A DNA stretch of 64,000 nt from Bradyrhizobium sp. Ash2021 (GTDB taxonomy: Bacteria > Pseudomonadota > Alphaproteobacteria > Rhizobiales > Xanthobacteraceae): positions 1,842,501-1,906,500 of the forward strand of contig NZ_CP100604.1 of assembly GCF_031202265.1 (NCBI RefSeq). The letters run 5' to 3'. The notes beneath the pieces were generated by a model. It worked only from the letters and a program-made list of their open reading frames with translations, searched no databases and was not told where the DNA came from. How positions within the stretch are numbered: position 1 is the first letter of the stretch; each line of letters begins with the position of its first letter. A program made the translations under genes and the position numbers. Shown here piece after piece: positions 297 to 45,201 of the stretch.

Positions 297-1013
297 ATGC
301 TGGTTGTTGAGGGACTCACCGCAGGATATGGTCCGCTGGTCATACTGCGCGATATCTCCCTCAAGATGCTAAAGGGCGAGGCGGTTGCCATTGTCGGTGC
401 CAATGGTGCCGGAAAGACCACGCTGGTCCGCGCGCTTTGCGGGCTGAATAGGGCACACGGGGGCCGCATCGTCAAAAATGGCATCGATATCACCGGCTTC
501 CCGGCTCACGCCAGACCACGGCACGGGATGGCCGCGTTATTGGAAAACCGTCGCTTATTCGGCGAGTTCACCGTTCGTGACAATCTGCGCTTGGCCGAGG
601 AGGCCGGACGGAAGCATCGCGGGCGCGATCTTCGTTTCACGTGGGATGACATATGCGATCTGTTTCCCATGATCGGCGAACGCGAGCGTACCCGCGTCGA
701 ATTGCTGAGCGGCGGTCAACAGCAGATGGTGGCGATCGCCCGCGGCCTCCTGCTCCAGCCGGATTTACTAGTACTTGACGAACCATCGACCGGTTTGGCG
801 CCCAAGGTGGTGAAGGAGATCTTGCAGGTGCTGCACAATCTGCGTGCGCGGGGCATGGGAATTCTTCTCATCGAACAAAACGTCGGGATCGCGATCGAAA
901 TCACAGATCGCGCCTATGTCATGTCGTTGGGCCGTATCATCCACGCCGTGGACGGAAATGAATGGCGCGGCTTCATGTCCGATGAGCGGCTCGCAAAGGC
1001 TTTCTTAGGCTAG
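297..1013 (+). CDS. livF: ABC transporter ATP-binding protein, LivF type (copy 1)
   Basis: A 238-residue ATPase, the normal LivF length. Walker A GANGAGKTT lies at about residues 34-42, the signature LSGGQ at about 137-141 and Walker B LLVLDEP at about 157-163. It would energise a membrane permease (LivHM type) not present in this window. It follows the livG tail by 3 bp. A second copy lies at 29889-30608. Bases 321-718 of this copy are identical to 29913-30310, while both ends of the gene differ at many third positions. This pattern fits gene conversion or recent recombination between older paralogues. Confidence 0.9.
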   Translation: MLVVEGLTAGYGPLVILRDISLKMLKGEAVAIVGANGAGKTTLVRALCGLNRAHGGRIVKNGIDITGFPAHARPRHGMAALLENRRLFGEFTVRDNLRLAEEAGRKHRGRDLRFTWDDICDLFPMIGERERTRVELLSGGQQQMVAIARGLLLQPDLLVLDEPSTGLAPKVVKEILQVLHNLRARGMGILLIEQNVGIAIEITDRAYVMSLGRIIHAVDGNEWRGFMSDERLAKAFLG

Positions 1014-1014
1014 A

Positions 1015-1053
1015 AAAATCGATTTAATATCTAGTTCATCCATACAATCGATT
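1015..1053. promoter_or_regulatory. Two AT-rich palindromes upstream of the molybdenum hydroxylase operon
   Basis: AAATCGATTT (1016-1025) and AATCGATT (1046-1053) lie between livF and the large-subunit gene. The same core is seen as the perfect palindrome TAAAATCGATTTTA at 28847-28860, upstream of a GntR-family gene, and in degenerate form after the second livF (about 30608-30625). They are candidate operators, possibly for that GntR protein. The palindromes are seen in the sequence; the regulator assignment is inference. Confidence 0.45.
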
Positions 1054-1149
1054 ATTTAGTTGACTGATTCGCGCTCGTGTGGTGAATTGGGATCAGAAGT
1101 CTATCAGCGGGAGCCTCCTCCGGCTGCCCAACGCGGAAGCGGCGTTCGC

Positions 1150-5642: not shown

Positions 5643-6443
5643 ATGCACGAGTTTGAATACCATCGTCCGAAGACCCTGGCCGAGGCTTCCGCGCTCCTGC
5701 AGCAGGAGGCGGACGGCAAGCTGCTGGCTGGCGGCCAGACTCTGATCCCGACCCTGCGACAACGGCTGGCGTCACCGTCGGCGCTGATCGATCTCGCCGG
5801 CCTTCCGGAACTGACTGGAATTGAGAGAACTGGGCAGGTTATTTCGATCGGAGCCATGACACGCTACGCGGCAATCGTGGAATCGCCGCTCGTACGGACC
5901 GTACTGCCGTCGATCGCGCGCATGGTTGCAATGATCGGCGATCCGCTCGTCCGCAATCGCGGCACTATCGGCGGTTCGCTCGCGAACAACGATCCGACGG
6001 CCGATCTGCCGGCGGCGGCTCTTGCGTTGGATGCCCGGATGATCACCGATCGGCGGTCGATCGACGCTCACGATTTCTTTGTCGATCTGTTCACGACGGC
6101 GCTATTGCCCGGCGAGATTCTGACACGAATAGATTTTCCGATGCCTCGTCGTGCCGCCTACATCAAGTTTCGCAATCCGGCTTCGCGCTACGCGGTGGTC
6201 GGCGTGTTCGTTTCCGAGGGGCCAGCCGGCATAGCTGTGGCGGTGACGGGTGCCGGTCCGAAAGTGTTTCGGCAAAAGGCGTTCGAAGCAGCACTGGCAC
6301 GCGAATTCTCGCCGGCTTCGCTCGTCGGTATCACGGTGGACTCAGATGGTCTTAACAGCGATCTCCATGCGTCGGCAGATTATCGGGCCAATTTGGTTTC
6401 GGTGTTGGCCCGGCGAGCGGTGGCCGCGGCCATTTCGGCATGA
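5643..6443 (+). CDS. Molybdenum hydroxylase medium (FAD) subunit, CoxM-like
   Basis: A 266-residue FAD-binding subunit of the VAO/PCMH-like fold. LLAGGQTLIP near residue 31 and NRGTIGGSLANNDP near 103 are the two FAD-pyrophosphate loops of CoxM/XdhA medium subunits. The ATG at 5643 is preferred over upstream in-frame starts because the protein then begins MHEFEYHRPKTL, as is usual in the family, and it lies 10 bp after the 2Fe-2S gene. With the genes at 1150 and 5165 it completes the heterotrimer. Confidence 0.92.
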   Translation: MHEFEYHRPKTLAEASALLQQEADGKLLAGGQTLIPTLRQRLASPSALIDLAGLPELTGIERTGQVISIGAMTRYAAIVESPLVRTVLPSIARMVAMIGDPLVRNRGTIGGSLANNDPTADLPAAALALDARMITDRRSIDAHDFFVDLFTTALLPGEILTRIDFPMPRRAAYIKFRNPASRYAVVGVFVSEGPAGIAVAVTGAGPKVFRQKAFEAALAREFSPASLVGITVDSDGLNSDLHASADYRANLVSVLARRAVAAAISA

Positions 6444-6463
6444 GTTTTTGGAGGAACGACTAA

Positions 6464-7330
6464 ATGCGGCTCATGGTCTTCGACAATGCAGGGAAAAAAA
6501 GTCTCGGGTTGCGCGTGGGTGACCGGCTCCTGGATCTGACGCAACTCGAGCCGAACCAGCCAGCAGACGTCGCAGACGTATTGCGACAGGGGCCCAACGA
6601 GCTGGATCGACTGGCAGGATTGGCTGGCGGTGCGCCGAAGAATGCCTGGCGGCCGGCCGGAGACGTCGCGCTGTTGCCACCCACAATGCGTGTCGGAAAG
6701 ATCATCTGCCTCGGATTGAACTACATCGATCATGCCGCCGAAGCGGGACTTCAGAAGCCGGACTATCCGGTGGTGTTCCTTCGTGCGGCAACGTCGCTCG
6801 TTGGCCACGGGCATCCTATGATGCGGCCGCGTTGCTCCGATAAGCTGGATTACGAAGGCGAGTTGGTTGCATTCATCGGCAAAACCGGTCGCCATATCAC
6901 GCGCGACGAGGCGTTGTCGCACATCGCGGGCTACAGCGTGTTCAACGACGGCTCGATTCGCGACTATCAAACCCGCACGCCGCAGTGGACCGTGGGCAAG
7001 AACTTCGACGGCACCGGCGGCTTTGGACCCGAATTCGTTTCCGCGGACGAACTGCCGCCCGGAGCGAAGGGCCTCACGATCCAAACCCGCTTGAACGGCC
7101 ATTTGGTGCAGGACGCCAAGACCGACGACATGGTGTTCGACGTGGCGGAGACTGTGGCTCTGCTTTCGGAATGCATGACACTGGAAGTCGGCGACCTTCT
7201 GGTGATGGGAACGCCTTCCGGGATCGGCGCAGTACGGAAGCCGCCCCTTTGGATGAAGCCGGGCGACATCTGCGAAGTCTCCATCGAGCGCCTTGGCGTA
7301 TTGCGCAACCCTATTGCCCAAGAGGCTTGA
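6464..7330 (+). CDS. Fumarylacetoacetate hydrolase family protein (second in operon)
   Basis: A 288-residue FAH-family enzyme with an N-terminal lid region, then the core GLNYIDHAAEAG (about residue 84), DYEGELVAFIGK (about 128, metal-binding Glu) and MGTPSGIGAVRKPP (about 246). It resembles 2-keto-4-pentenoate hydratase / acylpyruvate hydrolase proteins more than the first FAH gene does. It probably cleaves or hydrates a ring-fission product from the molybdenum hydroxylase pathway. It lies 20 bp after the FAD subunit gene and 5 bp before the nitroreductase gene. Confidence 0.88.
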   Translation: MRLMVFDNAGKKSLGLRVGDRLLDLTQLEPNQPADVADVLRQGPNELDRLAGLAGGAPKNAWRPAGDVALLPPTMRVGKIICLGLNYIDHAAEAGLQKPDYPVVFLRAATSLVGHGHPMMRPRCSDKLDYEGELVAFIGKTGRHITRDEALSHIAGYSVFNDGSIRDYQTRTPQWTVGKNFDGTGGFGPEFVSADELPPGAKGLTIQTRLNGHLVQDAKTDDMVFDVAETVALLSECMTLEVGDLLVMGTPSGIGAVRKPPLWMKPGDICEVSIERLGVLRNPIAQEA

Positions 7331-8502: not shown

Positions 8503-9366
8503 ATGCGATTACACGACGCCGACATAAAGACGCGGGAAGTCCTCAGCCTGCGCGGACTACATCTATTCCATGCTCATACGTCATCCTGCTCCCAGAAAGT
8601 GCGCATGTTCCTAAATTACAAGGGCATTCAATACGTCCCGCACCATATCAATATCTCCGAGAACGCGAACATCAGCGAGTATTTTCTTGGAATAAATCCT
8701 CGCGGACTCGTGCCCGTTCTGGTGCACGACGGATCAGTCCACATCGAGAGCAACGATATCCTCGTTTATCTAGAGGACCTGTTTCCCGAGCCTGCGCTTA
8801 TCCCGACGGCCGCCAGAGACGAAATCAGCAGGCTACTCCGGCATGAGAACGACCTTCATCTCGACCTGCGAACGATCAGTTTCCGCTTTCTTATCGCGCC
8901 GGTGCGCCCTCCCAAATCTTCCGACGACCTCGACCGCTACGGGCGGCTCGGGACCGGCACGGTGGGAGGCGTACCCGATAAACGACTTGACGTGGAAATC
9001 GAGTTTTGGCGCGACGTTGCTGAGACCGGCATCTCGAACGGTGCTGCACAGAGCGCGGCGCTGAAGTTCCAAGAGGCGTTCACCGAGCTTGATCGCCGAC
9101 TGAGCGGGCAACCGTATTTCATGGGTAAGACTCTTTCCGTCCTCGATATTGCTTGGCTGGTCTACGTCAACAGGCTGGATCTGGCAGGTTATCCTTTGGC
9201 CGCGCTTCATCCGCGCCTCGCTGCGTGGGCGTCCAGGTTGTCCCAACATCCCGCGTTCAAGGACGAACTGGCTCTGCCACCTGACCTCGTTCAACTTGTT
9301 GCGCGACGACGTCAGGCGCTGGAATTAGCTGGAGGGACGTTGGTTCAGGTGTGCAATCTTTCCTAG
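8503..9366 (+). CDS. Glutathione S-transferase family protein
   Basis: 287 residues. An N-terminal thioredoxin-like domain (HAHTSSCSQKVRMFLNYKG, then NPRGLVPVLV and IESNDILVYLEDLFP) is followed by a helical C-terminal domain with KTLSVLDIAWLVYVNRL. Members conjugate glutathione or open, isomerise or dehalogenate electrophilic substrates. It is longer than a typical ~210-residue GST because of an insert around residues 125-175, as in some GST-C relatives. I use the ATG at 8503, preceded by GGTGGAGA; an in-frame GTG at 8494 is possible. It is separated from the operon by a transposase scar, so its link to that pathway is uncertain. Confidence 0.85.
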   Translation: MRLHDADIKTREVLSLRGLHLFHAHTSSCSQKVRMFLNYKGIQYVPHHINISENANISEYFLGINPRGLVPVLVHDGSVHIESNDILVYLEDLFPEPALIPTAARDEISRLLRHENDLHLDLRTISFRFLIAPVRPPKSSDDLDRYGRLGTGTVGGVPDKRLDVEIEFWRDVAETGISNGAAQSAALKFQEAFTELDRRLSGQPYFMGKTLSVLDIAWLVYVNRLDLAGYPLAALHPRLAAWASRLSQHPAFKDELALPPDLVQLVARRRQALELAGGTLVQVCNLS

Positions 9367-9382
9367 TGGTTGCATGTGAGGC

Positions 9383-9751
9383 TCATAGTTCGAACAGCGC
9401 GCGATAGTGAGGAGGCACCTCGTCGTTCAACGAATGCCCTTTTTCCGGGACGAAGGCGTTCCAGAACACCAACCGGCGAATCCGATCGGGAATTTCCTCC
9501 GCAAGCCGGGCGATGATCGTGCCGCCGTAGGAGTGCCCGACCAGGACGAAGTCCCGCAGGCCGGCCTTCACGATCTGCGCGACGAGGTCGTCGACCTGCT
9601 GGGCGTGATCGACGCGCTTGTCGACGTTCAAGCCGTGTCCAAGCACCGTCGGTGCCACTACCGAGTGGCTCTGCTGTTCGAGCCGCTTGGCAACCGGACC
9701 CCAGTTCTCTCCGGGGTGCCACGAACCGTGGATGAGAACGAATTTCGACAT
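9383..9751 (-). pseudogene. Truncated alpha/beta hydrolase (nucleophile half only)
   Basis: The first 122 residues of an alpha/beta hydrolase of the salicylate-esterase / methylesterase type: VLIHGSWHPGENW (oxyanion strand) and the nucleophile elbow VGHSYGG. The frame then ends at RALFEL-stop. The family is normally ~230-240 residues, and the missing half carries the acidic residue and catalytic His, so the product should be inactive. The next bases belong to the end of the GST gene, so the 3' half has been deleted. It lies in line with the DoxX gene upstream on the same strand. Confidence 0.75.
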
Positions 9752-9838
9752 GTCACGTCCCCTAATGCTGACAACGAAGGTATATGCGAAGACCGTCACC
9801 CTCGGAAACGCAACCTTTGTGAACTCCGAGCCGGCGGC

Positions 9839-29888: not shown

Positions 29889-30608
29889 ATGCTGACTGTC
29901 GAGGGACTCACTGCAGGATATGGTCCGCTGGTCATACTGCGCGATATCTCCCTCAAGATGCTAAAGGGCGAGGCGGTTGCCATTGTCGGTGCCAATGGTG
30001 CCGGAAAGACCACGCTGGTCCGCGCGCTTTGCGGGCTGAATAGGGCACACGGGGGCCGCATCGTCAAAAATGGCATCGATATCACCGGCTTCCCGGCTCA
30101 CGCCAGACCACGGCACGGGATGGCCGCGTTATTGGAAAACCGTCGCTTATTCGGCGAGTTCACCGTTCGTGACAATCTGCGCTTGGCCGAGGAGGCCGGA
30201 CGGAAGCATCGCGGGCGCGATCTTCGTTTCACGTGGGATGACATATGCGATCTGTTTCCCATGATCGGCGAACGCGAGCGTACCCGCGTCGAATTGCTGA
30301 GCGGCGGTCAGCAACAGATGGTTGCGATCGCCCGCGGCCTCCTGCTGCAACCGGACCTATTGATACTTGACGAACCATCCACTGGTTTGGCGCCCAAGGT
30401 GGTGAAAGAGATCTTGCAAGTGCTGCATAATCTGCGCGCGCGGGGCATGGGCATCCTTCTCGTCGAACAGAACGTCGGGATCTCAATCGAAATCACCGAC
30501 CGGGCTTATGTCATGTCGTTGGGGCGCATCGTCCACGACGTGCAGGGAAATGAATGGCGCAGCTTCATGCAAGACGAGCGACTAGCGAAAGCATTTTTGG
30601 GTCAATGA
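29889..30608 (+). CDS. livF: ABC transporter ATP-binding protein, LivF type (copy 2)
   Basis: 239 residues with intact Walker A (GANGAGKTT), LSGGQ and Walker B (LLILDEP). It is nearly identical to copy 1 except for a few N-terminal residues and the C-terminus (VHDVQGNEWRSFMQDERLAKAFLGQ against IHAVDGNEWRGFMSDERLAKAFLG). The gene itself is intact, but everything upstream in its operon is broken. It would only be useful if its product joins permease subunits made elsewhere. Confidence 0.88.
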   Translation: MLTVEGLTAGYGPLVILRDISLKMLKGEAVAIVGANGAGKTTLVRALCGLNRAHGGRIVKNGIDITGFPAHARPRHGMAALLENRRLFGEFTVRDNLRLAEEAGRKHRGRDLRFTWDDICDLFPMIGERERTRVELLSGGQQQMVAIARGLLLQPDLLILDEPSTGLAPKVVKEILQVLHNLRARGMGILLVEQNVGISIEITDRAYVMSLGRIVHDVQGNEWRSFMQDERLAKAFLGQ

Positions 30609-30650
30609 AAAATCGATGCATTTTTATTCTCTTATAAAAAATCGTTTTTT
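30608..30650. promoter_or_regulatory. AT-rich palindromic region before the truncated hydroxylase gene
   Basis: AAAAATCGATGCATTTTT (30608-30625) and AAAAAATCGTTTTTT (30636-30650) lie at the position equivalent to the palindromes at 1015-1053 in copy 1. The spacers share the AAAATCGAT theme although they are otherwise diverged. Confidence 0.4.
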
Positions 30651-30747
30651 CTTGATTTCGCTGTCATTGTGTGCTGCCCTGGAGAGGGCGGACAAAAGCC
30701 TCTCAGCCAAAGCCTTCGGCTGAAACAACGCGGAAGCGGGCCTTCGC

Positions 30748-32500
30748 ATGGAAAAATACGGTATCGGACAAGCAACCCCGCGGTTCGAGGATGCCCGGCT
30801 GCTGCGCGGGCGCGGTCGATTCCAGGATGACCGCAATCTGTCAGGTCAAGCTTACGCGGTGGTGCTCCGGTCGCCGCACGCGCACGCCCGTGTCCTTGGG
30901 CTCGACACCGCCGCGGCCAAAGCAGCGCCGGGTGTCCTCGCGGTCTATAGCGGGTCTGATTATGAGGCGGACGGGCTTGGAATGCCAAAGGCCACCATGC
31001 CGCGCAAACGGCCCGATGGCTCGCCAATGTTCGCGCCGCAACGTCCCGCTCTGGTGGTTGATCGTGTCCGTTATGTCGGCGATCCGGTTGCCCTGATTGT
31101 CGCTGAGACCCTGGCGCAAGCGAAGGATGCTGCAGAGCTCATCGGCGTAGATTATGAACCGCTGCCGGCTGTCACCTCAACGGCAGAGGCCGACCAGCCT
31201 GGCGCCGCGCGGGTCTGGGACAAGTGTCCAGACAACATTTCCAACATCTCCGAGAAAGGCAACAAGGACGCGGCCTCGGCAGCCTTCGCGCGGGCGGCGC
31301 ATGTAATTAAGAGACGCTATGTCATCACGCGGGTGCATGCGCAGTATATGGAAACCCGTGGCGCGCTGGGCGCTTATGATGCGGGGGATGAACGCTACAC
31401 CCTCTATACCGACTGCCAGTATCCGCATCGAGTCCGCAACATGCTGGCGAGTGCAGTCTTCCGTGTGCCGGAAAGCAGGATTCGCGTCGTTAGCGGTGAT
31501 GTCGGCGGCGGGTTCGGCAGCAAGGGGTGGCAATATGTCGAACATCGCCTGGTGTTGTGGGCAGCCAAGAAACTTGGCCGGCCCGTCAAATGGACTTGCG
31601 ATCGCTCCGAGGCCGTTCTCGCCGATGAACACGGCCGCGACAGCGTGGGTGAAATCGAGCTCGCGCTCGACGAGGCTTATCGCTTCGTGGGCTTGCGGCT
31701 GAAGCTCGTCGGAAATATCGGCGCGTACGTTGCGTCCGACCGCAGTCTGCTGGTGCCCTCGATGATGATCGGGACCGTGACGGGCGTCTACGACATTCCA
31801 GCCGCATACGTCGCGGTCATCGGCGTTCTGACCAACACAAGCAATACGGCGCCTTACCGCGGTGCCGGCCGGCCGGAGGCGATCTACCTGATTGAGCGCC
31901 TGATCGACGACGCGGCGCGCGAGCTGAAGATCGATCGCCTCGAATTGCGGCGTCTCAATATTATCCCAACGGCCGCTATGCCGTATCAGAACCCGCTGGG
32001 GTGCTACTACGATTGTGGCGACTTTCCAGGAAACCTCGATCTCGCGCTCGAAGTGGGTGACTACGCCAACTTCGAATGCCGTCGTCGAGTGTCGCTGGAG
32101 CGCGGCCTCTTGCGCGGCATTGGTGTAGCAAACGCGATTGAGCAAGCCGCGACCCCGACCCAATCGGAGTTTGCGGAGATCCGCTTCGACACGAGCGGTA
32201 GCGCGCAATTGCTGATGGGCACCAAGAATCAAGGGCAGGGACACGAGACGACCTTTAAACAGATACTGCATGAGCGTTTGGGGCTGGACCCACGCGACGT
32301 CCATTTTGTCGACGGCGACACCGATCAGGTGGCCTTTGGAATGGGCACCAACGGCTCGCGCTCCACAGTGGTGGGCGGTTCAGCAATACATTTCGCCGCG
32401 GAGAAAATCGTCGAAAAGGGCAAGCGTATCGCCGCACACCTGATGGAATCCGATGCGAAGGATCTGGAATTTTCCGCCGGCAAATTCATCGTGGCGGGCC
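30748..32500 (+). pseudogene. Molybdenum hydroxylase large subunit, truncated (copy 2)
   Basis: The frame reads like the gene at 1150 up to about residue 580 (KDLEFSAGKFIVAG) and then runs into unrelated sequence with a stop at 32721. The last ~200 residues, including the catalytic Glu loop GAKGAGEAG, are absent, so the product cannot be active. The N-terminal ~97 codons are diverged from copy 1 (about 85-90 % identical by eye), then 31042-32439 is identical. It could act as a recombination donor for the intact gene. Confidence 0.88.
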
Positions 32501-32543
32501 ACCAGCAGCAAAGGAGTCTCTCGACCAACGTTAACCTCCAAGG

Positions 32544-32574
32544 AAGCCTCCGGCATGCCCGCCGGAGGCTTTTC
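32544..32574 (+). terminator. Rho-independent terminator
   Basis: Arms AAGCCTCCGGC / GCCGGAGGCTT with a 6-nt loop, followed by TTTTC on the plus strand, about 50 bp after the break in the hydroxylase pseudogene. It presumably came from the end of another operon together with the fused sequence. Confidence 0.7.
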
Positions 32575-32824
32575 GGTCGAGGAAACACCGAGAGTCTGGG
32601 ACAACTGCCATCGATCAATGACCGCACGCTTTCATTTTCCAATGTCGAACTTGCTGCAGATGCAAAGCACGCTTGCATCAAGATAATCAGCAGGCGGGAT
32701 GCGACGGTTGTCCACTCATGACCAGAGGTGATTGGGTGCGATTTCTCTCAAACAGAACTTACTTCCAGCGTGCGGAACTACAAACCAATACAACAACTGA
32801 TCTGCCCCTAGGCACCGAGGATTT

Positions 32825-35753: not shown

Positions 35754-36009
35754 TTTACGACAGGGACAGCTATGCCGAGATGATTCGAGTCTTGCGCGGC
35801 ACTCGATGCCTGTCTGATGCCGACCGCCGATGAAAACGAGGATGCGAAGTTCGCGCTGAGCAGTCCGATCTACAGCCGGTTTCCTGTCAGGGTCGTGCGT
35901 GCCATGCATAGCCCAGCCGGGTTCGAGACCTTGGTCTCATCTTGCGCCCACGCCGCTTGCTGGTGCGGCCGTGCTCGGCCGACCCTCGAACCGTAGGGTC
36001 ACGAAGAAT

Positions 36010-36267
36010 TCACGGGTCCGCGTCGCCGGCATCCTCGATGATCTTGACGACCTTGATTCCGACCCCGACCTCGCCTCGCATCAGAAATTCGACGCCGCGT
36101 TTCTCCAGATAGGAGACGAGCGCTTCAATCGTCCGGTCGTAGGGCAGCCGCTCGCCGGCCTCAAAATGCTTGAGGGTCCGGAGACCGACCTTGGTCCGCT
36201 CCGCGAGCTTGGCCTGCGACAGGCCCAGCCATGCCCGTGCTGCCGCTATTTGCATTCCGTTAACCAC
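36010..36267 (-). CDS. XRE-family helix-turn-helix regulator
   Basis: 85 residues. The HTH is at about residues 5-58 (MQIAAARAWLGLSQAKLAERTKVG, LRTLKHFEAGERLPYDRTIEALVSYLEKRGVEFL), followed by a short strand and VVKIIEDAGDADP. This compact form is common as a phage/plasmid-type repressor or as an antitoxin-like regulator in alphaproteobacteria. It is divergent from the HNH gene with only ~80 bp between starts, so it probably controls the whole plus-strand block. Confidence 0.8.
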   Translation of the reverse strand: MVNGMQIAAARAWLGLSQAKLAERTKVGLRTLKHFEAGERLPYDRTIEALVSYLEKRGVEFLMRGEVGVGIKVVKIIEDAGDADP

Positions 36268-36349
36268 AACTGTGCCTATTTAGTGCAATGTTCGATCTGA
36301 TGTGCAATGGTGGGCCATCGACAACGACCAACCAACGAGGACCCACCGA

Positions 36350-36952
36350 ATGACGTGCCTTCCCAACTTCAGCCCTTCTCCGACGACCGGCCCGGCCGAC
36401 CAATCCGTCCGCGATCGCATCGTCGGCGCCGCGGCTTCCGTGCCGCCGACCGCCGAGCGCCCGGCCACGATGGCCTCGCCGCTGTCGTCCGCGAACGTCG
36501 CAATCGTCATGTCCGTCCTGATCGGCATGGGGGTGCTCTTCACCTCGACGCTCCCGGGCGAGACCGACGAATCGCCGCGCGCCGGCGATGATCCGGCCAA
36601 TCCGCGCGGAGCTCAAGTCGCCCGTCGCCCGGACTACGCGGCTCATATCAACAGCGACGCCTGGAAGAGCGGCGCCGCGCGTCTGACCGAACTCGCAGCA
36701 TCGGGCTTCCGCTGCCGCATCTGCAACCAGGGCGCGGACGAAGCCAGGCTGGAGGTCCATCACCGGACCTACGAGAACTTCGGCCACGAGCTGGCCGCCG
36801 ACCTGACGACGTTGTGCTCGGACTGCCACCTCGTCAACACCGACGCGTTGCGTCGCCGCGGTTACACGGACTTCGTGCCGGTCTTGGCCGACGTCGCTTT
36901 CGTCGAACGCGCTCCGCTGTTCGACCCGATGCGCAAGGGAGACGCGTCATGA
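36350..36952 (+). CDS. HNH endonuclease domain protein with N-terminal membrane segment
   Basis: 200 residues. A Pro/Thr-rich N-terminus is followed by one hydrophobic segment (VAIVMSVLIGMGVLFTSTL, about residues 50-68). The C-terminal HNH domain begins AAHINSDAWKSGAARLTELA and contains CRICNQG, LEVHHRTYENFGHE and LTTLCSDCHLVN, the two Cys pairs and the HH-N-H metal centre of a complete HNH fold. The ATG at 36350 follows ACGAGGACCC; an in-frame GTG at 36302 is an alternative. It overlaps the next gene by ATGA. A membrane-tethered HNH nuclease is unusual. Confidence 0.75.
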   Translation: MTCLPNFSPSPTTGPADQSVRDRIVGAAASVPPTAERPATMASPLSSANVAIVMSVLIGMGVLFTSTLPGETDESPRAGDDPANPRGAQVARRPDYAAHINSDAWKSGAARLTELAASGFRCRICNQGADEARLEVHHRTYENFGHELAADLTTLCSDCHLVNTDALRRRGYTDFVPVLADVAFVERAPLFDPMRKGDAS

Positions 36953-37521
36953 CCATCGAGACGATCCAGATCCCGATCAGGGGCGTGTGCCCGCTGCTCA
37001 TGCACAACGGCGCCTTGGCCGATCCGCTCGACGAACGCGCCATCAGCCTCGCCGCCATCACCGGCAAGAAGCTCAAGACGAGGGCCGACCACGAGGAGAT
37101 CGCCCGCCGCGAATGGTACGGAGGTCTGTGGCTCACCGACAAGCTGCCGTGCCTGCCGCAGGAGGCGATCGAGGCGGCCTTCGTCAAGGGCGCCATCACG
37201 CGGACCAGGAAGGGCGACGCCGCGAAGGCCGGCTTCGTCGTCAACGAACCGGCGATGCTGGTCTACGACGGACCGACCGACCTCGGCGAGCTGTGGAAGG
37301 ACGAACGGTTCCGGCTGCGCAAGGGTGTCCGCGTCCTCAGGGCGCGCCCCATGCGGACCCGTCCGCGCTTCCCCGAATGGAGCGCCGTGATCTCGGCCAC
37401 GTTCCTGACCACCGAACTGAATCGGTCCGAGGTGGTGGATTTCATGAAGATCGCGGGAGCGATGCGTGGCATCGGCGACTGGCGGCCCAAGTACGGCCGG
37501 TTCGAGGTGCTCATCGACTAG
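36949..37521 (+). CDS. Phage-type conserved protein of unknown function
   Basis: 190 residues starting MTIETIQIPIRGVCPLLMHN and containing LADPLDERAISLAAITGKK. The opening '...G.xPLLMHNxxLADP...' is one I associate with a family of uncharacterised prophage-encoded proteins, with ends such as MRGIGDWRPKYGRFEV. No catalytic motif is apparent. Translation is coupled to the HNH gene by a 4-bp overlap, so the two products may act together (inference). Confidence 0.65.
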   Translation: MTIETIQIPIRGVCPLLMHNGALADPLDERAISLAAITGKKLKTRADHEEIARREWYGGLWLTDKLPCLPQEAIEAAFVKGAITRTRKGDAAKAGFVVNEPAMLVYDGPTDLGELWKDERFRLRKGVRVLRARPMRTRPRFPEWSAVISATFLTTELNRSEVVDFMKIAGAMRGIGDWRPKYGRFEVLID

Positions 37522-37610
37522 GTTCAAGGCCCGGCACGGCGCGGCAAGGTGCGGCGTGGCGGGGTGTGGCCCGGCGAGCCATGGCACGCTCCGGCGTGGC
37601 GAGGGGAGAG
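37522..37610 (+). repeat. G-rich degenerate short repeat
   Basis: Downstream of the phage-type gene, irregular units like GGCACGGCGCGGC, GGTGCGGCGTGGC and GGGGTGTGGCCCGGC follow one another for ~80 bp, with almost all G on the plus strand. It is not coding in any convincing frame. The remainder of the gap to 37707 is unremarkable. Confidence 0.5.
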
Positions 37611-37707
37611 CTCCTAACCGAGCTGCTCCAGATTTTTCAGAAACAGAAACGACGCCGTCCGCGGCGACGGTCGACGTGCCCCAAGGGCGCGAACGGGAGA
37701 ACTTTGC

Positions 37708-38211
37708 GTGAAGCGTATGAAGAACATCGATGAAAGGGCCGGCGACGCCGCCGGGGCGTACGCCCATTGCGGCCCCTGGGCCGAGGGGCTCCGACTGTGG
37801 CGCACGGTGCCTGCGGATCGCTTCGGTCCCACCGAGCGCGCCGTCGTCGCCGAATGCATGCGGCGCATGTCCTCTACCATCGAGGTCTGGCAGGCGGCGA
37901 TCGGCGGCGACGCGCCGAGCGCAATCCGCCTGGCCCTTCGGATGGAGCGGCCGCTCGCGATCACGCCGGCGAGCGATGTCACCATGACGGTGCTGCTCAA
38001 CGCCGCGCTCGCCGGCAGCGCCGGCGCCGCGCTCGTGCTGTCGCACATGCTCCGGCAGATGCCGCTCGACGCCGTCAACCGGCGCCGTCTCGCGACCTCG
38101 TGGCTGGCCCAAAACATCCGCCGTGCCTTTTCCGAGCGCGGCCGCGGAGGCATCCGTCGCCGTCGCGACCGGAGCGCTGCGGGCAACGCACAAGGGGAGG
38201 GCAAGCCGTGA
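37708..38211 (+). CDS. Hypothetical protein of the phage/plasmid-like block
   Basis: 167 residues from a GTG start with GGGAGA seven bases upstream. I do not recognise the family. The middle (FGPTERAVVAECMRRMSSTI; ALAGSAGAALVLSHMLRQM) is helical; the C-terminus is strongly basic (RRAFSERGRGGIRRRRDRS) and could bind nucleic acid. Its stop overlaps the phosphoesterase start (GTGA), so both are made from one message. Confidence 0.6.
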   Translation: MKRMKNIDERAGDAAGAYAHCGPWAEGLRLWRTVPADRFGPTERAVVAECMRRMSSTIEVWQAAIGGDAPSAIRLALRMERPLAITPASDVTMTVLLNAALAGSAGAALVLSHMLRQMPLDAVNRRRLATSWLAQNIRRAFSERGRGGIRRRRDRSAAGNAQGEGKP

Positions 38212-39029
38212 GAGTTCAGATCTTCTCCGACCTTCACGCGGGCGTCGCTCCCCTCAAGCGGATCACGGTCGCCAAGGACGTCGCCCTCGTCATCGTCGCC
38301 GGCGACGTCGCCGAAGGCGCGCAAAACGCATTCGTGACGCTGCGCCGCATCGTGCCGGAGGCGGTGCCCGTCGTCTTCACCATGGGCAACCACGAATACT
38401 ACCGGCGGTTCCTAGGCGAGGAGCTCGCGCTCGCCAGGGCACTCGCGCCTAACTTCAATATCCATCTGCTGGAGAACGACTGCATCGTCGTCGGCGACGG
38501 CACCGTCAGGGTCGCAGGCGCTTCGCTGTGGACCGACTATCGCATGTTTGGCGACAGCAACGCGCCCGCAGCGATGCATGCCGCGCGCGTCGGAATGAAC
38601 GACCACCGCCTGATTGGCTGGAAACGCAAACCGTGGGAGCGCTTCCGGCCGCAGGAGGCGGCGCTGCTGCACGCGGCCTCGCGGGCCTTTTTCGTCGAGA
38701 CCTTCAGCACCCCGTTCGACGGGCTCGCCACGATCGCGGTCAGCCACCACGCGCCCCACGTCGGATCCGTCGCCGCACGGTTCGAGAATGACATCCTCAG
38801 CGCGGCATTCGCCAGTACGTTCCTCGACGAGCTGAATTCCGGGCGACAGGCCGGCGTCGGGCCGCTCGTCGCGGCGACGCCGAAGGCGCCGGACTTCTGG
38901 ATCCACGGGCACGTCCACGACAGCGCGGACTACCGCGTCGGCCCGACGAGGGTGATCGCGAATCCGCACGGGTACGGCCGAGAGAATGCGGATTTCGACC
39001 CGACTTTGGTCATTGAGGTGGGCTCATGA
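38208..39029 (+). CDS. Metallophosphoesterase (calcineurin-like)
   Basis: 273 residues from GTG. The five metal motifs are in order: FSDLHAG (residues ~6-12), GDVAE (~30), GNHEYY (~65), SHHAPH (~183) and HGHVHD (~230). This is a complete dimetal site for a phosphodiesterase or phosphatase. The overall layout resembles small stand-alone metallophosphatases of phages and accessory islands; the substrate (nucleotide, nucleic acid end or phosphoprotein) is unknown. The start overlaps the upstream stop (GTGA), and its own stop overlaps a 38-codon ORF (ATGA). Confidence 0.88.
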   Translation: MRVQIFSDLHAGVAPLKRITVAKDVALVIVAGDVAEGAQNAFVTLRRIVPEAVPVVFTMGNHEYYRRFLGEELALARALAPNFNIHLLENDCIVVGDGTVRVAGASLWTDYRMFGDSNAPAAMHAARVGMNDHRLIGWKRKPWERFRPQEAALLHAASRAFFVETFSTPFDGLATIAVSHHAPHVGSVAARFENDILSAAFASTFLDELNSGRQAGVGPLVAATPKAPDFWIHGHVHDSADYRVGPTRVIANPHGYGRENADFDPTLVIEVGS

Positions 39030-39142
39030 AACCGATCGGGAAACACCGTCCGCGGAGCGCACGTAAGCCGCCGCTGCACGAGCGGGCTCGGCCGCCACCA
39101 CCGTCGCCGCCGTCCCCCTCGGCACCGTCGCCGTCGTTATGA
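39026..39142 (+). CDS. Possible small Pro/Arg-rich protein (38 residues)
   Basis: An ATGA overlap with the phosphoesterase stop starts MKPIGKHRPRSARKPPLHER, followed by a proline/serine run. The coupled start is like the others in the block, but low complexity and short length make it doubtful as a functional protein; it may serve as a translational bridge to the DUF6634 gene at 39161. Confidence 0.35.
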   Translation: MKPIGKHRPRSARKPPLHERARPPPPSPPSPSAPSPSL

Positions 39143-39160
39143 TCACAACCGAGAACCGTC

Positions 39161-39538
39161 ATGTTGACCAAGAATTTCCCTTTCCTTCTTCCGTGCAACA
39201 CCGGAATTACGATTCCGGCGACACTGCGGCGCCTGGCGGACGACTTGGACCGCATCCGCGCCGGCACCGGGCCCACCGCGGAGGAGTTCGCGAGCGCGCC
39301 GCTGATCGTCGACTGGCGCTGCGTACTGACACCCGTCGGTCTGAGTCTATCCGGTTTCGTCGCAGGCCATCCCCTGCTCGGAAATCGCCCGGCGCGGACG
39401 TCGCAGCTTTGGGCCGCCGACGCCAGCGGACGCTGGGTACGGACGCTCACACGTTACTACAGGCTTGGAATCTCCTTCGACCATGCTGCGTTCGACGATA
39501 CCGATGCGACGGAAGATCGTGGAGGCCGCCGTGAGTAA
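39161..39538 (+). CDS. DUF6634 family protein
   Basis: 125 residues: LRRLADDLDRIRAGTGPTAE, then APLIVDWRCVLTPV, LSGFVAGHPLL, SQLWAADASGRWVRTLTRYYRLG. This follows the pattern of DUF6634 proteins found in rhizobial islands (…DDLxRIxxGTxPTxEDLxxAPLLxxW…GHPxxxxRxxxTSxLWxxD…). Function unknown. It overlaps the AAA+ gene by 8 bp, suggesting coupled synthesis. A frame at 39139 covers the same DNA but is not protein-like. Confidence 0.7.
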   Translation: MLTKNFPFLLPCNTGITIPATLRRLADDLDRIRAGTGPTAEEFASAPLIVDWRCVLTPVGLSLSGFVAGHPLLGNRPARTSQLWAADASGRWVRTLTRYYRLGISFDHAAFDDTDATEDRGGRRE

Positions 39539-41912
39539 GGCTGTGCGCCCGTACGGCTCCCGCAACGCGGCGAGCCTCAATACTGGCCCGGAGCAAGTGC
39601 CGACCTATACGGTCGCGTTGTCCGACGCGCTCCTTGAGCGCGGTCGCGCTGTCCTGTTCGACGGCTCGTTGCCGTCGATTGCCGATGCGCTGTGCATGCT
39701 CGGCCCGCCGTTCGGCGATGGTTTCGGCGCTGTCGGACGGATGTCGCAAAACTGGCTGACGCAGCCGTTGGCGAACTCCTACGATGCGCGAGAAGCGCTC
39801 GATGGTATCTCCGTTGATGAAGATGACCTAATTCGGCTTCGGGAGGTGCTTGCGCGAGATTTCACGATTGCACCGCGTGAGTCCCGCGTACTGATCGGAA
39901 ACACCATTGTCGAGCTCGACATGGTCATGGCCTGGACATCGGGCGCAGCCGGAGCCGTACAGCTTGCCGGTCTTTCGGCCTGCCACTCGCGGCGCAGTCC
40001 CGATGCTGACGAGCGGCTGCTCGCCGCCGCGGCGGCGCTGGCGTACGCCGCCGACGTGCAACTCCCCGGATTTCCGGCTTATGGGCGATGGGGGTCGGCC
40101 GCCGGCGCGACCAAGGGCGAAGGGATCGTAGCCCTCGTTGAGACCACCGAAGCGATTCTGCGCGCCTTTGCGGAGCGACGCATGAGCGGCCATACCTCGG
40201 CGACCAAAATCTCGGAGAAAAACCCTTCCGACAATGCCGTCGTCGTCGCGCATGAGACAGCCGATCTACTGCGCGCGATGCCCGTCCGGCTGCCCTTCGT
40301 CGATTCCGGCACCGACAGCTGCGAGACGTTCGCATCTCTGCTGTGCCCCGGCCGAGTCGCGGAATTTTCGCCGGAAGCGACGCGACGGGAGGATCTGAGA
40401 CGGGACTACGCAGCCTGGGCTACCCACCTCATGCTGACGCACGCGGCCGCGCTCCCGTTCGTCGAAGGGTTTATGCGATTGGTCGCAGACATGATGGCGG
40501 GACGGCGCTTCTCAGTGCCCGGCGTGATCGATTTGCTCGACGAGGTGGAAATGCTGTCGCTGCCGGACGACCCCGAGGACCCGGTCGCCGCATGCCTGTC
40601 GGACATCGTTCGCGCCGTCAGGCTGCGGCTAAACTTGTATGCGGCCCATCAGGGCGATCCGACGGCCGCCGCCAGGATCGCATCCTGGTCCGCCGGCTTC
40701 GCCGTCGCCAGGATCGGCCGCAATACGTTCTGGCCGATGATGGTCGCATCTCTTGCTTGGGCGGAGCGTTCTGCCATCGCACATCCTTTCGCGCTGTTGC
40801 CCAACGTCTCGCCGCGGATCCCCGACGTCGACGACGTGATGAACGAACCCGTTGCATCCCGTTTGGATCACGTGGCCGCTGGGCTTGCCCACGCGCTCGC
40901 TACGGTCACCGTGGTGCGCGACGACGGCGCAGAAAGCGAGGAACGCAGCTTTGGCGGCCTCTGGCGCCGGTCGGTTGCGACGCCGGCGGAAACGCGACGC
41001 GCCGTAGTGGCGCGCGCCGACGCTTTGGCCAGGGGCCGCAACGTGGGCAAGGAAGCCGTTGTCGTCGTGCGCTCGATCGCGGAGGGCAAGACCAACGCCG
41101 CGCGGGAGATGCAGGCAGAGTTTCAAGGGATGTTGGGCGAACCGATACCGCTTGTCTGCACCAGGGATGTCCGAGAGGCCTACCGAAAGCTTGTCGCGGA
41201 GGCCCCGCACGCGCGCGCGATCATCGATGTCGTGCTGCGCGACACCGCCGGCTCGCGGACCGCCGCGTGGCGACCGACAATCCTCGTCGGCAAACCGGGC
41301 TCGGGCAAGACCTGGCTGTGCCTGCGCATCTGCCAGGAACTGCACCTGCCGCACCGGGTCTTCGCGTGCGGTGGCGTCAGCGACTCCTCGTTCAACGGCA
41401 CCTCGCGCCAGTGGTCGACCGGCCGCGCCAGCGTTCCGTTGCAGATGATCCGGCAGCACCGCGTCGCCAACCCTGCCATCGTCCTCGACGAGATCGACAA
41501 GGTCGGCGAGGGCCGTCAGAACGGCAACCTCGTCGACGGTCTTCTCTCGATGCTCGAGCCGCTCAACTCCTCCGGCATCTTCGACCCGTATCTGGAGGGA
41601 GAAGTGGACCTCCACCGGGTGTTGTGGCTGGCGACCGCGAACGATGCAGGGGCGCTCCATCCCGCCCTGCTGGACCGCCTCCGTATCCTTGAGATGCCCG
41701 ATCCGCGCGCGGACGACCTGACCGCTGTGCTTCCCGGCGTGACGTCGGCCATCGTCGAAAGGCGCGGGCTGTCGCCCGAATGGATCGCGCCGTTCGACGC
41801 GACCGAGCTCGACATTATCGCCGGCCTCTGGCCGGGCGGGTCGATGCGCCGGCTGGCACGCATCGTCGAGGTGATCCTGGATGCCCGTGACAATCCGCAA
41901 CGCGCCAACTGA
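39531..41912 (+). CDS. AAA+ ATPase of Lon type without a protease domain
   Basis: 793 residues from GTG, preceded by GGAGG. The N-terminal ~480 residues are mostly helical and unrecognised. The AAA+ module lies at about 570-760: Walker A VGKPGSGKTW (~586-595), a Lon-like MIRQHRVANPAIVLDEIDKVG (Walker B ~649), SMLEPLNSSGIFDPYLEGEVDL, sensor 1 LWLATAND (~698) and LLDRLRILEMP with the arginine finger. These spacings closely follow bacterial Lon, but the chain ends with the small AAA lid, and there is no Ser-Lys peptidase domain. It is probably an energy-dependent remodelling or unfolding factor for the block's other proteins (inference). Confidence 0.85.
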   Translation: MSKAVRPYGSRNAASLNTGPEQVPTYTVALSDALLERGRAVLFDGSLPSIADALCMLGPPFGDGFGAVGRMSQNWLTQPLANSYDAREALDGISVDEDDLIRLREVLARDFTIAPRESRVLIGNTIVELDMVMAWTSGAAGAVQLAGLSACHSRRSPDADERLLAAAAALAYAADVQLPGFPAYGRWGSAAGATKGEGIVALVETTEAILRAFAERRMSGHTSATKISEKNPSDNAVVVAHETADLLRAMPVRLPFVDSGTDSCETFASLLCPGRVAEFSPEATRREDLRRDYAAWATHLMLTHAAALPFVEGFMRLVADMMAGRRFSVPGVIDLLDEVEMLSLPDDPEDPVAACLSDIVRAVRLRLNLYAAHQGDPTAAARIASWSAGFAVARIGRNTFWPMMVASLAWAERSAIAHPFALLPNVSPRIPDVDDVMNEPVASRLDHVAAGLAHALATVTVVRDDGAESEERSFGGLWRRSVATPAETRRAVVARADALARGRNVGKEAVVVVRSIAEGKTNAAREMQAEFQGMLGEPIPLVCTRDVREAYRKLVAEAPHARAIIDVVLRDTAGSRTAAWRPTILVGKPGSGKTWLCLRICQELHLPHRVFACGGVSDSSFNGTSRQWSTGRASVPLQMIRQHRVANPAIVLDEIDKVGEGRQNGNLVDGLLSMLEPLNSSGIFDPYLEGEVDLHRVLWLATANDAGALHPALLDRLRILEMPDPRADDLTAVLPGVTSAIVERRGLSPEWIAPFDATELDIIAGLWPGGSMRRLARIVEVILDARDNPQRAN

Positions 41913-42037
41913 CGCGATGGATGATGCAGGCCGTGATCGTCATCACCATCGCGTTGCCGGCCCGACGGACAGCGGTGGACCGACGTGCCGGGAAGGCAGG
42001 TGATGTCCAAACCTTTGATTGCCGATGAGGAAGGAGT

Positions 42038-42061
42038 GTGACTGGTCACGTGACTAGTCAC
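42038..42061. promoter_or_regulatory. Two tandem 12-bp palindromes
   Basis: GTGACTGGTCAC (42038-42049, one mismatch) is directly followed by GTGACTAGTCAC (42050-42061, perfect). They sit between an AAGGAG motif and the ATG at 42072, so a bound protein would cover the start region of the last gene. Confidence 0.6.
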
Positions 42062-42071
42062 GAACAGCACC

Positions 42072-42806
42072 ATGAAATCACGCACCTCTGATCGGTCGAC
42101 CGCCGGCGAGCAAGATGAGCCGTCCCCGAAGGGGCGCGGCGCGCGTCGGAAGATACCGTCCGACCGTCAGCTCGCGCGCTTGGGTCTCAAGCCCGTCGAG
42201 GCGTTCGTCTGCGCCGCCTTGCTGTCCGGCGAACCGGAGGAAGCCGGAGAAGGCGAGGCGCCGCCCGAGACTGATGCGGAGCGGAAGCGCAAGCAACGCG
42301 GACGAGAAGAGCAGGAAGGAGTTGCTGAGTTCAACGTCAAGGTCCCGAAGAACGATAAGGCGGTTAAGGACACCATCAAGGCCGTCGCGGAGTCGGCCCG
42401 CGGCGACAGGCAGCTATATGCCGCGGTAGTCGGGATAGCGGCCGACGCATCATTGCGGACGCTCGTGAGTTCAGTCTCCGCTACGCCCCAGTTGCTGCCG
42501 TTGATGGCCGAGATCGTGCAACGAGTGGACGTGCGAACGCTGGTGGAGGCGGTGGTCGCGGATCAGGTCTTCGCCCGCACCCTGTTGGACTTCGTAAGCG
42601 CTGGCAGTCTTCCCGCTGAAGTCTGGGCCGTGATCGTTGGCGAAATCAACCGCGTCGCAGCCGAAGGAATCGCGACTCGCGTCGTCGCGGGTGCCCGCCC
42701 CAGGCCATTGCACCCCAGACGATCTTCTTGGCCGCGTCCGCAATGTTGGCGGTCTCGTTCACCAGCGCCGCATTCCGGCCGCCGAGTTCTAGCTGGACCG
42801 GCGTGA
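42072..42806 (+). pseudogene. Hypothetical protein of the phage/plasmid-like block, 3' end replaced
   Basis: The native part is about residues 1-206: a basic N-terminus (KGRGARRKIPSDRQLARLG), an acidic linker, an RKRKQRGREEQEGVAEFNVKVP segment resembling plasmid-type DNA-binding small domains, then helical VRTLVEAVVADQVFARTLLD. At about 42690 the sequence switches to antisense aldehyde dehydrogenase and the frame runs on to a chance stop at 42806. Therefore the true C-terminus is lost. I know no function; the tandem palindromes just upstream may be its operator. Confidence 0.55.
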
Positions 42807-43050
42807 TGTTTTCAGTCGCAGCCCTCATCACGATCTTGCTGACTTTCGTGCTGCCGGTAAAAAAGATGAAGTTAAAAGGAAGCTTCAGAAGCTTAGTGAC
42901 TTCTTCCCGGTCTCCCGTCACGGCAGCCACCGCGCGCCGATCGAAATAATGTGGCACCAGCTCCACAAGTAGCGCGGGCGTCACGCTGAGTTGTTCGAAA
43001 AGCTTGAGAATACAGGTATCACCCGCCGCGAGGGCGGTGATCGCGGGCAA
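42690..43050 (-). pseudogene. Internal fragment of an aldehyde dehydrogenase
   Basis: On the minus strand: ITALAAGDTCILKLFEQL, FNFIFFTGSTKVSKIV, PVQLELGGRNAALVNETANI, AAKKIVWGAMAWGG. This corresponds to roughly residues 130-245 of the intact enzyme encoded at 43819-45201, which it resembles at about two thirds of positions. Both ends are missing: one is cut by the phage-like block at 42690, the other stops near 43050. The catalytic Cys region is absent. It is an old paralogue, not a copy of the neighbour. Confidence 0.8.
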
Positions 43051-43818: not shown

Positions 43819-45201
43819 TCAATACTCAAACCACCCTGCCAGCGCCTGATTCTTTTCGTCAGTGAAGGGCGAGTACAGGTGTTCGATCGCAACGTCGGGC
43901 GGAGAGATCAGCATCGACTTGGCATGGGTGAGCGCGTCGAAGCCGTATTTTCCATAATAGTGACCCATCCCGGCCGATCCTGTGCCGCCGAACGGCATGG
44001 TCTCGACGAACAAGTGAACATTCACCAGGTTCACCCCGCCGCCACCGAAGGAAAGCTGACCGATAAACCGGTCGATGGTTTTCTGATCGCGGCTGAAGAT
44101 GTAGCCGGCGAGCGCTCGTGGTGTCGCCGCCATTCGCGCCATCGCCTCGTCGAAGGACTTGTAGGTCAGGATCGGCAAGATCGGGCCGAAGACCTCGTCC
44201 TCCATGATCTTGTCTTCCCAGGTGATGGGATAGAGAAGCGTCGGATCGAGATAGTGCGCTTTCGGATCCGACTTGCCGCCGGCGATCACCTTGGCGGGGT
44301 CGATGAGCGAGGCCAGTCGATCAACCGCGCGCGCGTTGATGACGCGCGAGTAGTCGGAGTTTGATTTCGGGTCGTTACCGAAGAGCTCGACCAACGCCTT
44401 CTTGGCCTCGGCGACGAAGGCGTCCGCGACGGATTCGTGGACATAAGCGTAGCCGGGCGACGTGCACCATTGCCCGCCCCAGGCCATCGCCCCCCAAACG
44501 ATCTTCTTGGCCGCGTCGGGGATGTTTGCGGTCTCGTCCACGACCGCCGGGTTCATACCCCCGAGTTCGAGCAGAACCGGCGTGAGGGTTTCCGCCGCCG
44601 CCCGTGCGACGATCTTTCCGACGAAGCTGCTGCCGGTGAAGAAGATGAAGTCGTTGGGCAGCTTCAGCAGGTCGGTATTCGTCTCCTTACCGCCCGGGAC
44701 TGCAGTCACGGCGCGGGGATCGAAATATTTCGGGACAAGCTCAAGCAGCACTTCGGTCGTTGCCGGGAGCGCTTCGCTCAGGGTGAGAATGCAAGTGTTG
44801 CCGGCCGCAAGCGCGGTGAGCGCCGGACGGATCAGCAGCAGCAACGGTCCGTTGAACGGGCCGATGATCAGCGCCACACCGTACGGTTCTCGGTAGATCA
44901 TCCCCTTGTGACCGGTCTTGGCCAGGAAGCGCGGCACCGGCGCCTCGACCGGCTTCATCCATTCCTTCAGTTGACTCTTCTGGACTTCCGACTCGCCGGC
45001 CGATGCCGCGGTCTCGAATATGTATTCCTGCGAAGCGGTCTTGAAGTCCTTCGCCATCGCCTTCTGGAAGCGCCCCTCGTTCTCCCTGATCATGCGGGCC
45101 ATGCGGTCGAGCTGATCGACGCGCCATTCGTAGGTGCGGGTAACGCCCGTGCCGAAAAGCGCCTTCTGCGCGTCGAATATTTTCTGGAATTGGTTCATCA
45201 C
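43819..45201 (-). CDS. Aldehyde dehydrogenase (NAD(P)-dependent)
   Basis: 460 residues. NDFIFFTGSSFVGKIV near residue 190 is the cofactor loop, LLELGGMNPAVVDETANI near 217 carries the general base Glu, and GGQWCTSPGYAYV near 249 carries the catalytic Cys. It is of the short class 3-type (YwdH/AldA-like) family with the ending YSPFTDEKNQALAGWF. Oxidises an aldehyde to the acid. First gene of a unit with the HD-domain protein; 113 bp upstream on the same strand lies a SnoaL-like gene. Confidence 0.9.
   Translation of the reverse strand: MMNQFQKIFDAQKALFGTGVTRTYEWRVDQLDRMARMIRENEGRFQKAMAKDFKTASQEYIFETAASAGESEVQKSQLKEWMKPVEAPVPRFLAKTGHKGMIYREPYGVALIIGPFNGPLLLLIRPALTALAAGNTCILTLSEALPATTEVLLELVPKYFDPRAVTAVPGGKETNTDLLKLPNDFIFFTGSSFVGKIVARAAAETLTPVLLELGGMNPAVVDETANIPDAAKKIVWGAMAWGGQWCTSPGYAYVHESVADAFVAEAKKALVELFGNDPKSNSDYSRVINARAVDRLASLIDPAKVIAGGKSDPKAHYLDPTLLYPITWEDKIMEDEVFGPILPILTYKSFDEAMARMAATPRALAGYIFSRDQKTIDRFIGQLSFGGGGVNLVNVHLFVETMPFGGTGSAGMGHYYGKYGFDALTHAKSMLISPPDVAIEHLYSPFTDEKNQALAGWFEY

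What the first reader, a model, noticed from the sequence alone, without database searches (positions are those of the whole stretch)
35754..42690. Compact uncharacterised cassette: XRE regulator, membrane HNH nuclease, phage-type protein, phosphoesterase, DUF6634 and Lon-type AAA+
Genes are coupled by several 4-bp or 8-bp overlaps, under a divergent XRE repressor, in a mobile context. A nuclease with membrane anchor, a dimetal phosphoesterase and a protease-less Lon-like ATPase in one transcript look like a multi-protein machine (defence, element maintenance or interference) that I cannot match to any described system. This is my best candidate for a new system in the window.
Basis: inference. 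Interest (0 to 1): 0.7.

Follow-up and report, generated by a model that had tools for sequence, protein, structure and literature searches.

The report
RNA-guided defence aimed at phage domain
This bacterial gene cluster contains a recently described CRISPR-like RNA-guided protein whose built-in guide RNA appears to spell out, ignoring every third base, the most conserved motif of an Ig-like protein domain found in many phage genes, which suggests an inborn RNA-guided defence against many phages at once.

The parts
36010..36267 (-). divergent XRE-type repressor gene
   Evidence: PF13560/PF01381 E about 6e-8; a divergent XRE gene at 24 of 36 same-genus Vipr loci
36302..36952 (+). HNH nuclease gene; the conserved domain starts about 103 residues in, so the start codon is uncertain
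   Evidence: pattern C..C..HH.TY..E..DL..LC..CH in at least 90% of 39 aligned HNH proteins
36949..37521 (+). Vipr protein (RAMP fold), the 'phage-type protein'
37526..37605 (+). vrRNA repeat tract: 16 pentads NN-GGY (three with an off-consensus triplet); NN = AA CC AC GC AA GC GT GG GT CC GA AT AC CC GT GA
37561..37605 (+). conserved guide core GG GT CC GA AT AC CC GT GA; opposite-strand codons read S-T-G-V-[IM]-S-G-T-P
37605..37629 (+). 3' hairpin behind the repeat tract (tail of the proposed vrRNA)
   Evidence: RNA fold (the whole stretch is not more stable than shuffles, z -1.03); hairpins at the same place in many of 34 loci folded (judged by eye)
37708..38211 (+). ORF167, helical, weakly TPR/Sel1-like
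38208..39029 (+). calcineurin-like phosphoesterase
   Evidence: PF00149, phrog_1649 E 9e-37; in 20 of 36 Vipr loci
39161..39538 (+). DUF6634 protein
   Evidence: PF20339 E 6e-16; in 9 of 36 Vipr loci
39531..41912 (+). AAA+ protein with Lon-type ATPase module, no Lon protease match
   Evidence: in 10 of 36 Vipr loci
42072..42690 (+). ORF of unknown family that runs into an aldehyde-dehydrogenase fragment; membership uncertain
   Evidence: no family match; found in no other fetched locus

Best explanation
A chromosomal, nuclease-armed VIPR system with a fixed ('germline') guide. The vrRNA (37526-37629) is bound by Vipr subunits, which hold the GGY triplets and expose the NN pairs (mechanism from the preprint; not tested here). 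Read with the 1-nt skip, the NN code matches the non-coding strand, and so pairs with the coding strand, of genes for He_PIG Ig-like domains, which lie in many viral contigs, often several per gene. Because the skipped base is the codon wobble position and the guide covers the motif STGxISGTPT, one guide fits many unrelated phages. HNH would cut the bound DNA; ORF167, phosphoesterase, DUF6634 and the Lon-type AAA+ would form an accessory module that is also found with other nuclease-like genes. Shown by computation: fold, array, gene linkage, conserved code, match to He_PIG genes in viral contigs. Inferred: transcription, complex formation, cutting, phage protection, role of the accessory module.
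For: Vipr identity: RAMP fold; NNGGY arrays in 67 of 80 viral Vipr loci, 211 on the vipr strand against 2 on the other, and 1 array in 80 control viral loci. Linkage: all 36 full-length same-genus loci have HNH before and an array behind vipr (found). Code: five fixed core NN all present in 29 of 39 loci, at least four in 34; in these 34 NN divergence is 0.00 at core positions 0, 1 and 6 while the GGY of the same pentads differ at 0.19, 0.18 and 0.30; variants are protein-like: V/T/A/I/L at the free residue, Ser as GA (TCN) in 28 and CT (AGN, Ser or Arg) in 5 of 34; a Vipr locus in another family decodes to STGLLSGTPTT. 211 phage arrays contain no such core.
Against: No RNA, binding or cutting data. 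Longer exact guide patterns of L054 and of the window (24 and 22 bases) have no viral hit, and NN outside the core score near or below zero against viral sites. Two core positions (3 and 5) vary more than their GGY. He_PIG genes also occur in 20 of 43 host genomes. One of 6 target ORFs scanned shows Laminin_G, not He_PIG; only 1 of 4 target ORFs matched a tail family and 3 of 10 neighbours a tail or portal family, so 'structural gene' is known for few. No hit is tied to a phage of the host. The window stretch does not fold better than shuffles. 5 of 39 loci fall below four of five fixed NN. The window's own phosphoesterase has no PADLOC match.
Confidence: 0.65

Rival explanations
1. The guide serves the host: Vipr binds the host's own He_PIG adhesin-type genes and regulates them, without phage killing.
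For: He_PIG genes in 20 of 43 genomes, the window's own included. L054's guide matches its own genome's He_PIG region at 20 of 26 positions, above other skips (15-16); three short arrays (L270, L272, L273; 6 NN) reach 11 of 12.
Against: Of 20 array-region pairs (17 arrays, 13 genomes) none is perfect; apart from five 6-NN arrays all miss at least 4 positions, and for 6-NN arrays other skips also reach 9-11 of 12. 23 of 43 genomes have no He_PIG match though most of the 43 were chosen for carrying Vipr. The exact 16-base site is absent from the window's genome. A repressor needs no HNH gene, yet all 36 loci have one.
Confidence: 0.12
2. RNA-level or other-element targeting: the guide is antisense to He_PIG mRNA and blocks the transcript, or its true prey are plasmids or other bacteria's mobile DNA rather than phages.
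For: In every decoded locus the guide is complementary to the coding strand, hence also to the mRNA; the closest folds, Csm3 and type VII Cas7, are from RNA-targeting complexes.
Against: The preprint shows double-stranded DNA binding for VIPR; HNH is a DNA-nuclease family. One orientation also follows from common descent of the arrays. Plasmid collections were not searched for the target.
Confidence: 0.1
3. The NN core is conserved for structural or assembly reasons or by recent descent, and the He_PIG reading is a coincidence of a very common protein motif.
For: Arrays of related loci are homologous; He_PIG is common in viral contigs, so any pattern encoding its motif finds many hits.
Against: NN is more conserved than GGY at core positions 0, 1, 2, 4 and 6; substitutions keep the peptide motif; reversed, skip-0 and skip-2 patterns are rare; 211 phage arrays, bound by the same protein family, use all 16 NN and none has this core.
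Confidence: 0.05
4. The window copy is a decaying insertion without function, whatever the family does.
For: Flanked by two transposase genes and an aldehyde-dehydrogenase fragment; three GGY triplets of the window array are off consensus.
Against: All frames are open, gene couplings and core NN intact.
Confidence: 0.08

Closest known systems
VIPR systems (bioRxiv preprint, PMC13142463, doi 10.64898/2026.04.26.720920; whole main text read; supplement not readable)
   Same: small RAMP protein next to vrRNA-like arrays of alternating GGY/NN with a 3' tail; 1-nt-skip code fits; the preprint says types III and V carry predicted nucleases, sit in defence islands and have guides against viral sequences, and that some systems have one vrRNA
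   Different: the preprint describes hypervariable NN for the two clades it inspected; here the core is fixed and encodes a protein-domain motif. Its main text names neither He_PIG nor a phosphoesterase, DUF6634 or Lon-type AAA+ partner. Which of the seven types this is cannot be told from the main text.
CRISPR type III / type VII RAMP subunits (Csm3, Cas7)
   Same: predicted fold
   Different: no Cas family among the cassette proteins; guide in 5-nt pentads with conserved triplets
TIGR-Tas
   Same: RNA-guided, phage-linked (seen only as a search listing; rest recalled)
   Different: Nop-domain proteins and paired spacers (recalled), not a RAMP fold
Lon protease
   Same: AAA+ module
   Different: no protease domain match
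PADLOC defence candidates PDC-S14 and PDC-S10
   Same: GIY-YIG-like proteins in the front slot of Vipr-less cassettes match PDC-S14 (E 4e-26 and 2e-23); L054's phosphoesterase matches PDC-S10 (E 1e-8)
   Different: the window's own phosphoesterase and AAA+ have no match of that strength

Membership tests
VIPR | Vipr protein of RAMP (RRM-type) fold | tested here: met
VIPR | adjacent vrRNA of 9-16 alternating GGY/NN repeats with 3' tail | tested here: met
   16 pentads at 37526-37605, three with off-consensus triplets, and a hairpin behind. Only as DNA; expression not tested.
VIPR | target read as NNxNNx (1-nt skip) | tested here: met
   only the 1-nt-skip core finds abundant, wobble-aligned viral sites; skip 0: 8, skip 2: 6, reversed: 12 hits. 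Skip 3 was not scanned in viral contigs. Natural-target inference, not binding.
VIPR | RNA-guided DNA binding and repression or cutting | not testable with these tools
   needs biochemistry
VIPR type III or V | type-specific nuclease vap and Vipr clade | tested here: inconclusive
   HNH gene next to vipr in 36 of 36 loci fits 'predicted nucleases', but the type definitions are in an unreadable supplement
Type III / VII CRISPR-Cas | other Cas proteins in the operon | tested here: not met
   no Cas family among eight cassette proteins in Pfam or NCBIfam at E 0.1
Lon protease | C-terminal Ser-Lys protease domain | tested here: not met
   no PF05362 match; the lon model matched only positions 357-496 of 795

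The most novel reading that the evidence does not exclude
Innate, germline-encoded RNA-guided immunity: the bacterium inherits one guide that recognises a protein-domain motif at the DNA level (STGxISGTPT of He_PIG Ig domains), with degeneracy built in by skipping wobble bases, so that one guide covers very many phages; and this VIPR unit is one of several exchangeable nuclease-like units on a shared ORF167-phosphoesterase-DUF6634-AAA+ chassis.
Probability: 0.55. Interest if true: 0.95.

Novelty: new variant of a known kind. Interest (0 to 1): 0.86.

Why it matters
Guides of RNA-guided defence are usually thought of as memories of particular invaders. A conserved guide that encodes a protein motif would be a DNA-level pattern-recognition receptor, a possible step between phage-borne VIPR and adaptive CRISPR, and a natural, independent confirmation of the 1-nt-skip code in another host group. 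It makes the target of these systems directly testable. The exchangeable-nuclease chassis points to a wider family of defence-like operons that I did not find described (searches).

Tried and rejected
Self-targets near the cassette: guide of each of 39 loci scanned against its own fetched stretch at skips 0-3; nothing stood clearly above the other skips. Host chromosomal target: 14-base core with one mismatch in 44 genomes, matches in 43; the window's genome has 9 against 3 for the backward control; no listed row was exact, but the list was cut. Longer guide patterns: 0 viral hits. Toxin-antitoxin or IetA reading of XRE/AAA+: only weak matches. One fixed prophage or plasmid backbone: relatives lie on plasmids of different make-up and on chromosomes. 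Rfam: no match in the window. Tail covariation: my alignment A5 used wrong offsets and was dropped; covariation is therefore untested. The peptide count is circular for the target loci (205 of 205 by construction) and is not used. ORF167: only weak TPR/Sel1-like similarity. The first paper query missed the preprint; some searches found it and listed no other paper on VIPR; DUF6634 is in no held paper; papers on He_PIG in phages and PADLOC candidates were seen as listings only.

Rows left out before counts: 2 partial Vipr matches (G379, G526) of 38 places were not fetched. 5 of 39 loci (L241, L251, L259, L266, L268) have fewer than four of the five fixed NN; for L251 and L268, with a shifted register, I read the motif by eye, L266 was mis-phased by my script. 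The flank test (2.27 against a shuffled mean of -3.90) is partly circular, because the scans required GT or GA at positions -1, 7 or 8; the unselected position 5 gives +0.97, positions -2 and -3 give -0.02 and -0.51. L275's front-slot protein was read by eye only, not scanned.

Full report
Observation. The reported genes are in the window with the reported couplings. The stretch 36001-42000 is G+C richer (0.67) than the rest of the window (0.55-0.64). On the left lie two transposase genes, on the right an aldehyde-dehydrogenase fragment. The genome, 9.7 Mb in two contigs, is unnamed; I take it for Bradyrhizobium from names of close homologues. It has a second, divergent copy of the seven genes in the same order, L054.

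What the phage-type protein is. Homologues lie in 134 phage records and 480 stretches of viral contigs, of which the best 80 were kept. Reading the DNA beside the gene in phages Trine, LittleE, Medea1 and LESphi2 and in rhizobial cassettes showed a 5-nt rhythm NNGGC in non-coding DNA. A strict count found it in 31 of 80 viral loci, a weighted score in 67 of 80, with 211 arrays on the vipr strand and 2 on the other, against 1 array in 80 control viral loci of larger total length. The predicted structure (pLDDT 93) matches Csm3 and type VII Cas7 subunits. I recalled the name VIPR; searches then found one preprint, PMC13142463, whose main text I read whole (supplement not readable). It describes this pair: a RAMP protein and vrRNAs of GGY/NN repeats that recognise DNA as NN separated by one skipped base.

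Linkage. 34 of 257 same-genus genomes have a Vipr match (the tool scored 12 candidates per genome). Of 38 places, 36 full-length ones were examined (the window, L054 and 34 regions; the other 6 regions are Vipr-less AAA+ loci). All 36 have an HNH gene in front and an array behind; 28 have ORF167, 24 a divergent XRE gene, 20 the phosphoesterase, 10 the AAA+, 9 DUF6634. The AAA+ family is wider: 60 of 265 genus genomes and 31 of 296 family genomes. In six Vipr-less cassettes that I looked at, the slot in front of ORF167 holds other genes: about 290-aa proteins that I read by eye as PD-(D/E)XK-like (L072, L275, L276, L277; the three that were scanned have no Pfam or PADLOC match), or GIY-YIG-like proteins (L075, L274; Pfam GIY-YIG E 0.005-0.008, below cut-off; PADLOC candidate PDC-S14 E 4e-26 and 2e-23). 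This suggests a chassis with exchangeable nuclease-like units.

The guide. In the phased arrays the NN series GG GT CC GA AT nn CC recurs: the five scored positions (GG, GT, CC, AT, CC) are all present in 29 of 39 loci (36 plus L073, L074, L124) and at least four in 34. In these 34, NN are identical at core positions 0, 1 and 6 while the GGY of the same pentads differ (0.18-0.30); positions 3 and 5 vary more than their GGY. As codons NNx on the opposite strand the window's guide reads STGV[IM]SGTPTA and L054's [FL][KN]GV[IM]SGTPTT. The differences follow protein logic: V/T/A/I/L at the motif's free residue, and Ser written GA (TCN) in 28 and CT (AGN, Ser or Arg) in 5 of 34. Vipr is rare in the class (5 of 385 genomes, own included); one of these, in another family (G859), has an array that decodes to STGLLSGTPTT; the arrays of the other three were not examined. 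None of the 211 phage arrays has this core.

The target. In the 205 fetched loci 207 of 241 core matches lie in the opposite-strand, wobble-aligned frame as the longest frame, with 2 to 5 matches in 25 loci. Five of six target ORFs scanned carry He_PIG (PF05345), with 1 to 11 domains; the sixth shows Laminin_G only. One of four target ORFs matched a PHROG tail protein; of ten neighbouring ORFs three matched tail or portal families. In 289 genomes of the class the exact 26-letter pattern occurs once. Longer guides have no exact viral match and outer NN score near or below zero, so either about nine NN matter, or the true prey is not in the collection.

Self. 20 of 43 genomes examined have He_PIG genes. 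For 13 Vipr genomes I compared 17 arrays with their own He_PIG regions (20 pairs): none is perfect, the long arrays miss at least 4 positions (L054 6 of 26, the window 12 of 30); five 6-NN arrays miss 1 to 3 of 12, which other skips reach too. Self-regulation is therefore a live rival.

Accessory parts. HNH residues are conserved. ORF167 is helical, weakly TPR/Sel1-like. The vrRNA tail folds as a hairpin in the window, though the stretch as a whole is no more stable than shuffles; hairpins recur at that place in many loci by eye.

Mechanism. Vipr loaded with this guide would find He_PIG genes of incoming phage DNA and HNH would cut; the accessory module would assist. Fold, array, linkage, code and viral match are computed; transcription, binding, cutting and protection are inferred. 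I did not find a fixed, motif-encoding guide or this accessory module in the preprint's main text; its supplement may hold more.

Noticed in passing
L072, L275, L276, L277, L075, L274: Cassettes with ORF167 and AAA+ (some with phosphoesterase and DUF6634) but no Vipr carry another gene in the front slot: PD-(D/E)XK-like by eye, or GIY-YIG-like (PADLOC PDC-S14).
   Followed up: partly
L128 about 6570-6950 (Gordonia phage Trine); L129 about 6150-6500 (Mycobacterium phage LittleE): The arrays are interspersed with stretches that look like the 3' half of a tRNA (T-arm-like GGTTCGA, by eye), perhaps tRNA-like vrRNA tails.
   Followed up: no
L126 5585-6076, L127 6569-7027, L129 5582-6148, L128 6585-7388: In four phages vipr is followed by a small protein of one recognisable type (by eye) without a Pfam match over cut-off, perhaps a vap of the preprint.
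   Followed up: partly
window 297-3489 and 29889-32721: The ORF pairs at the two places begin with nearly the same protein sequence, an apparent duplication about 30 kb apart.
   Followed up: no
window 42646-43050 and 43819-45201: An aldehyde-dehydrogenase fragment abuts the right end of the cassette next to a longer similar gene.
   Followed up: no
L122 13031-14305, L123 12996-14270, L124 13026-14300: On three Bradyrhizobium plasmids a DUF2130 gene follows the AAA+ gene (annotation; Pfam for L122); by eye also behind L054.
   Followed up: no
L124 about 9220-9800 (plasmid pUSDA123-1): The vipr reading frame there is interrupted; the annotated protein is short. Intact copies exist elsewhere.
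   Followed up: no
G024:C1:5131457-5131479 and many other genomes: One site, one mismatch from the guide core, recurs in many same-genus genomes (GGTGTTCCAGAGCTTCAACCTGT); its gene was not looked up.
   Followed up: no
L243, L248, L260, L264, L266: A further ORF167-like gene lies upstream of the HNH gene.
   Followed up: no
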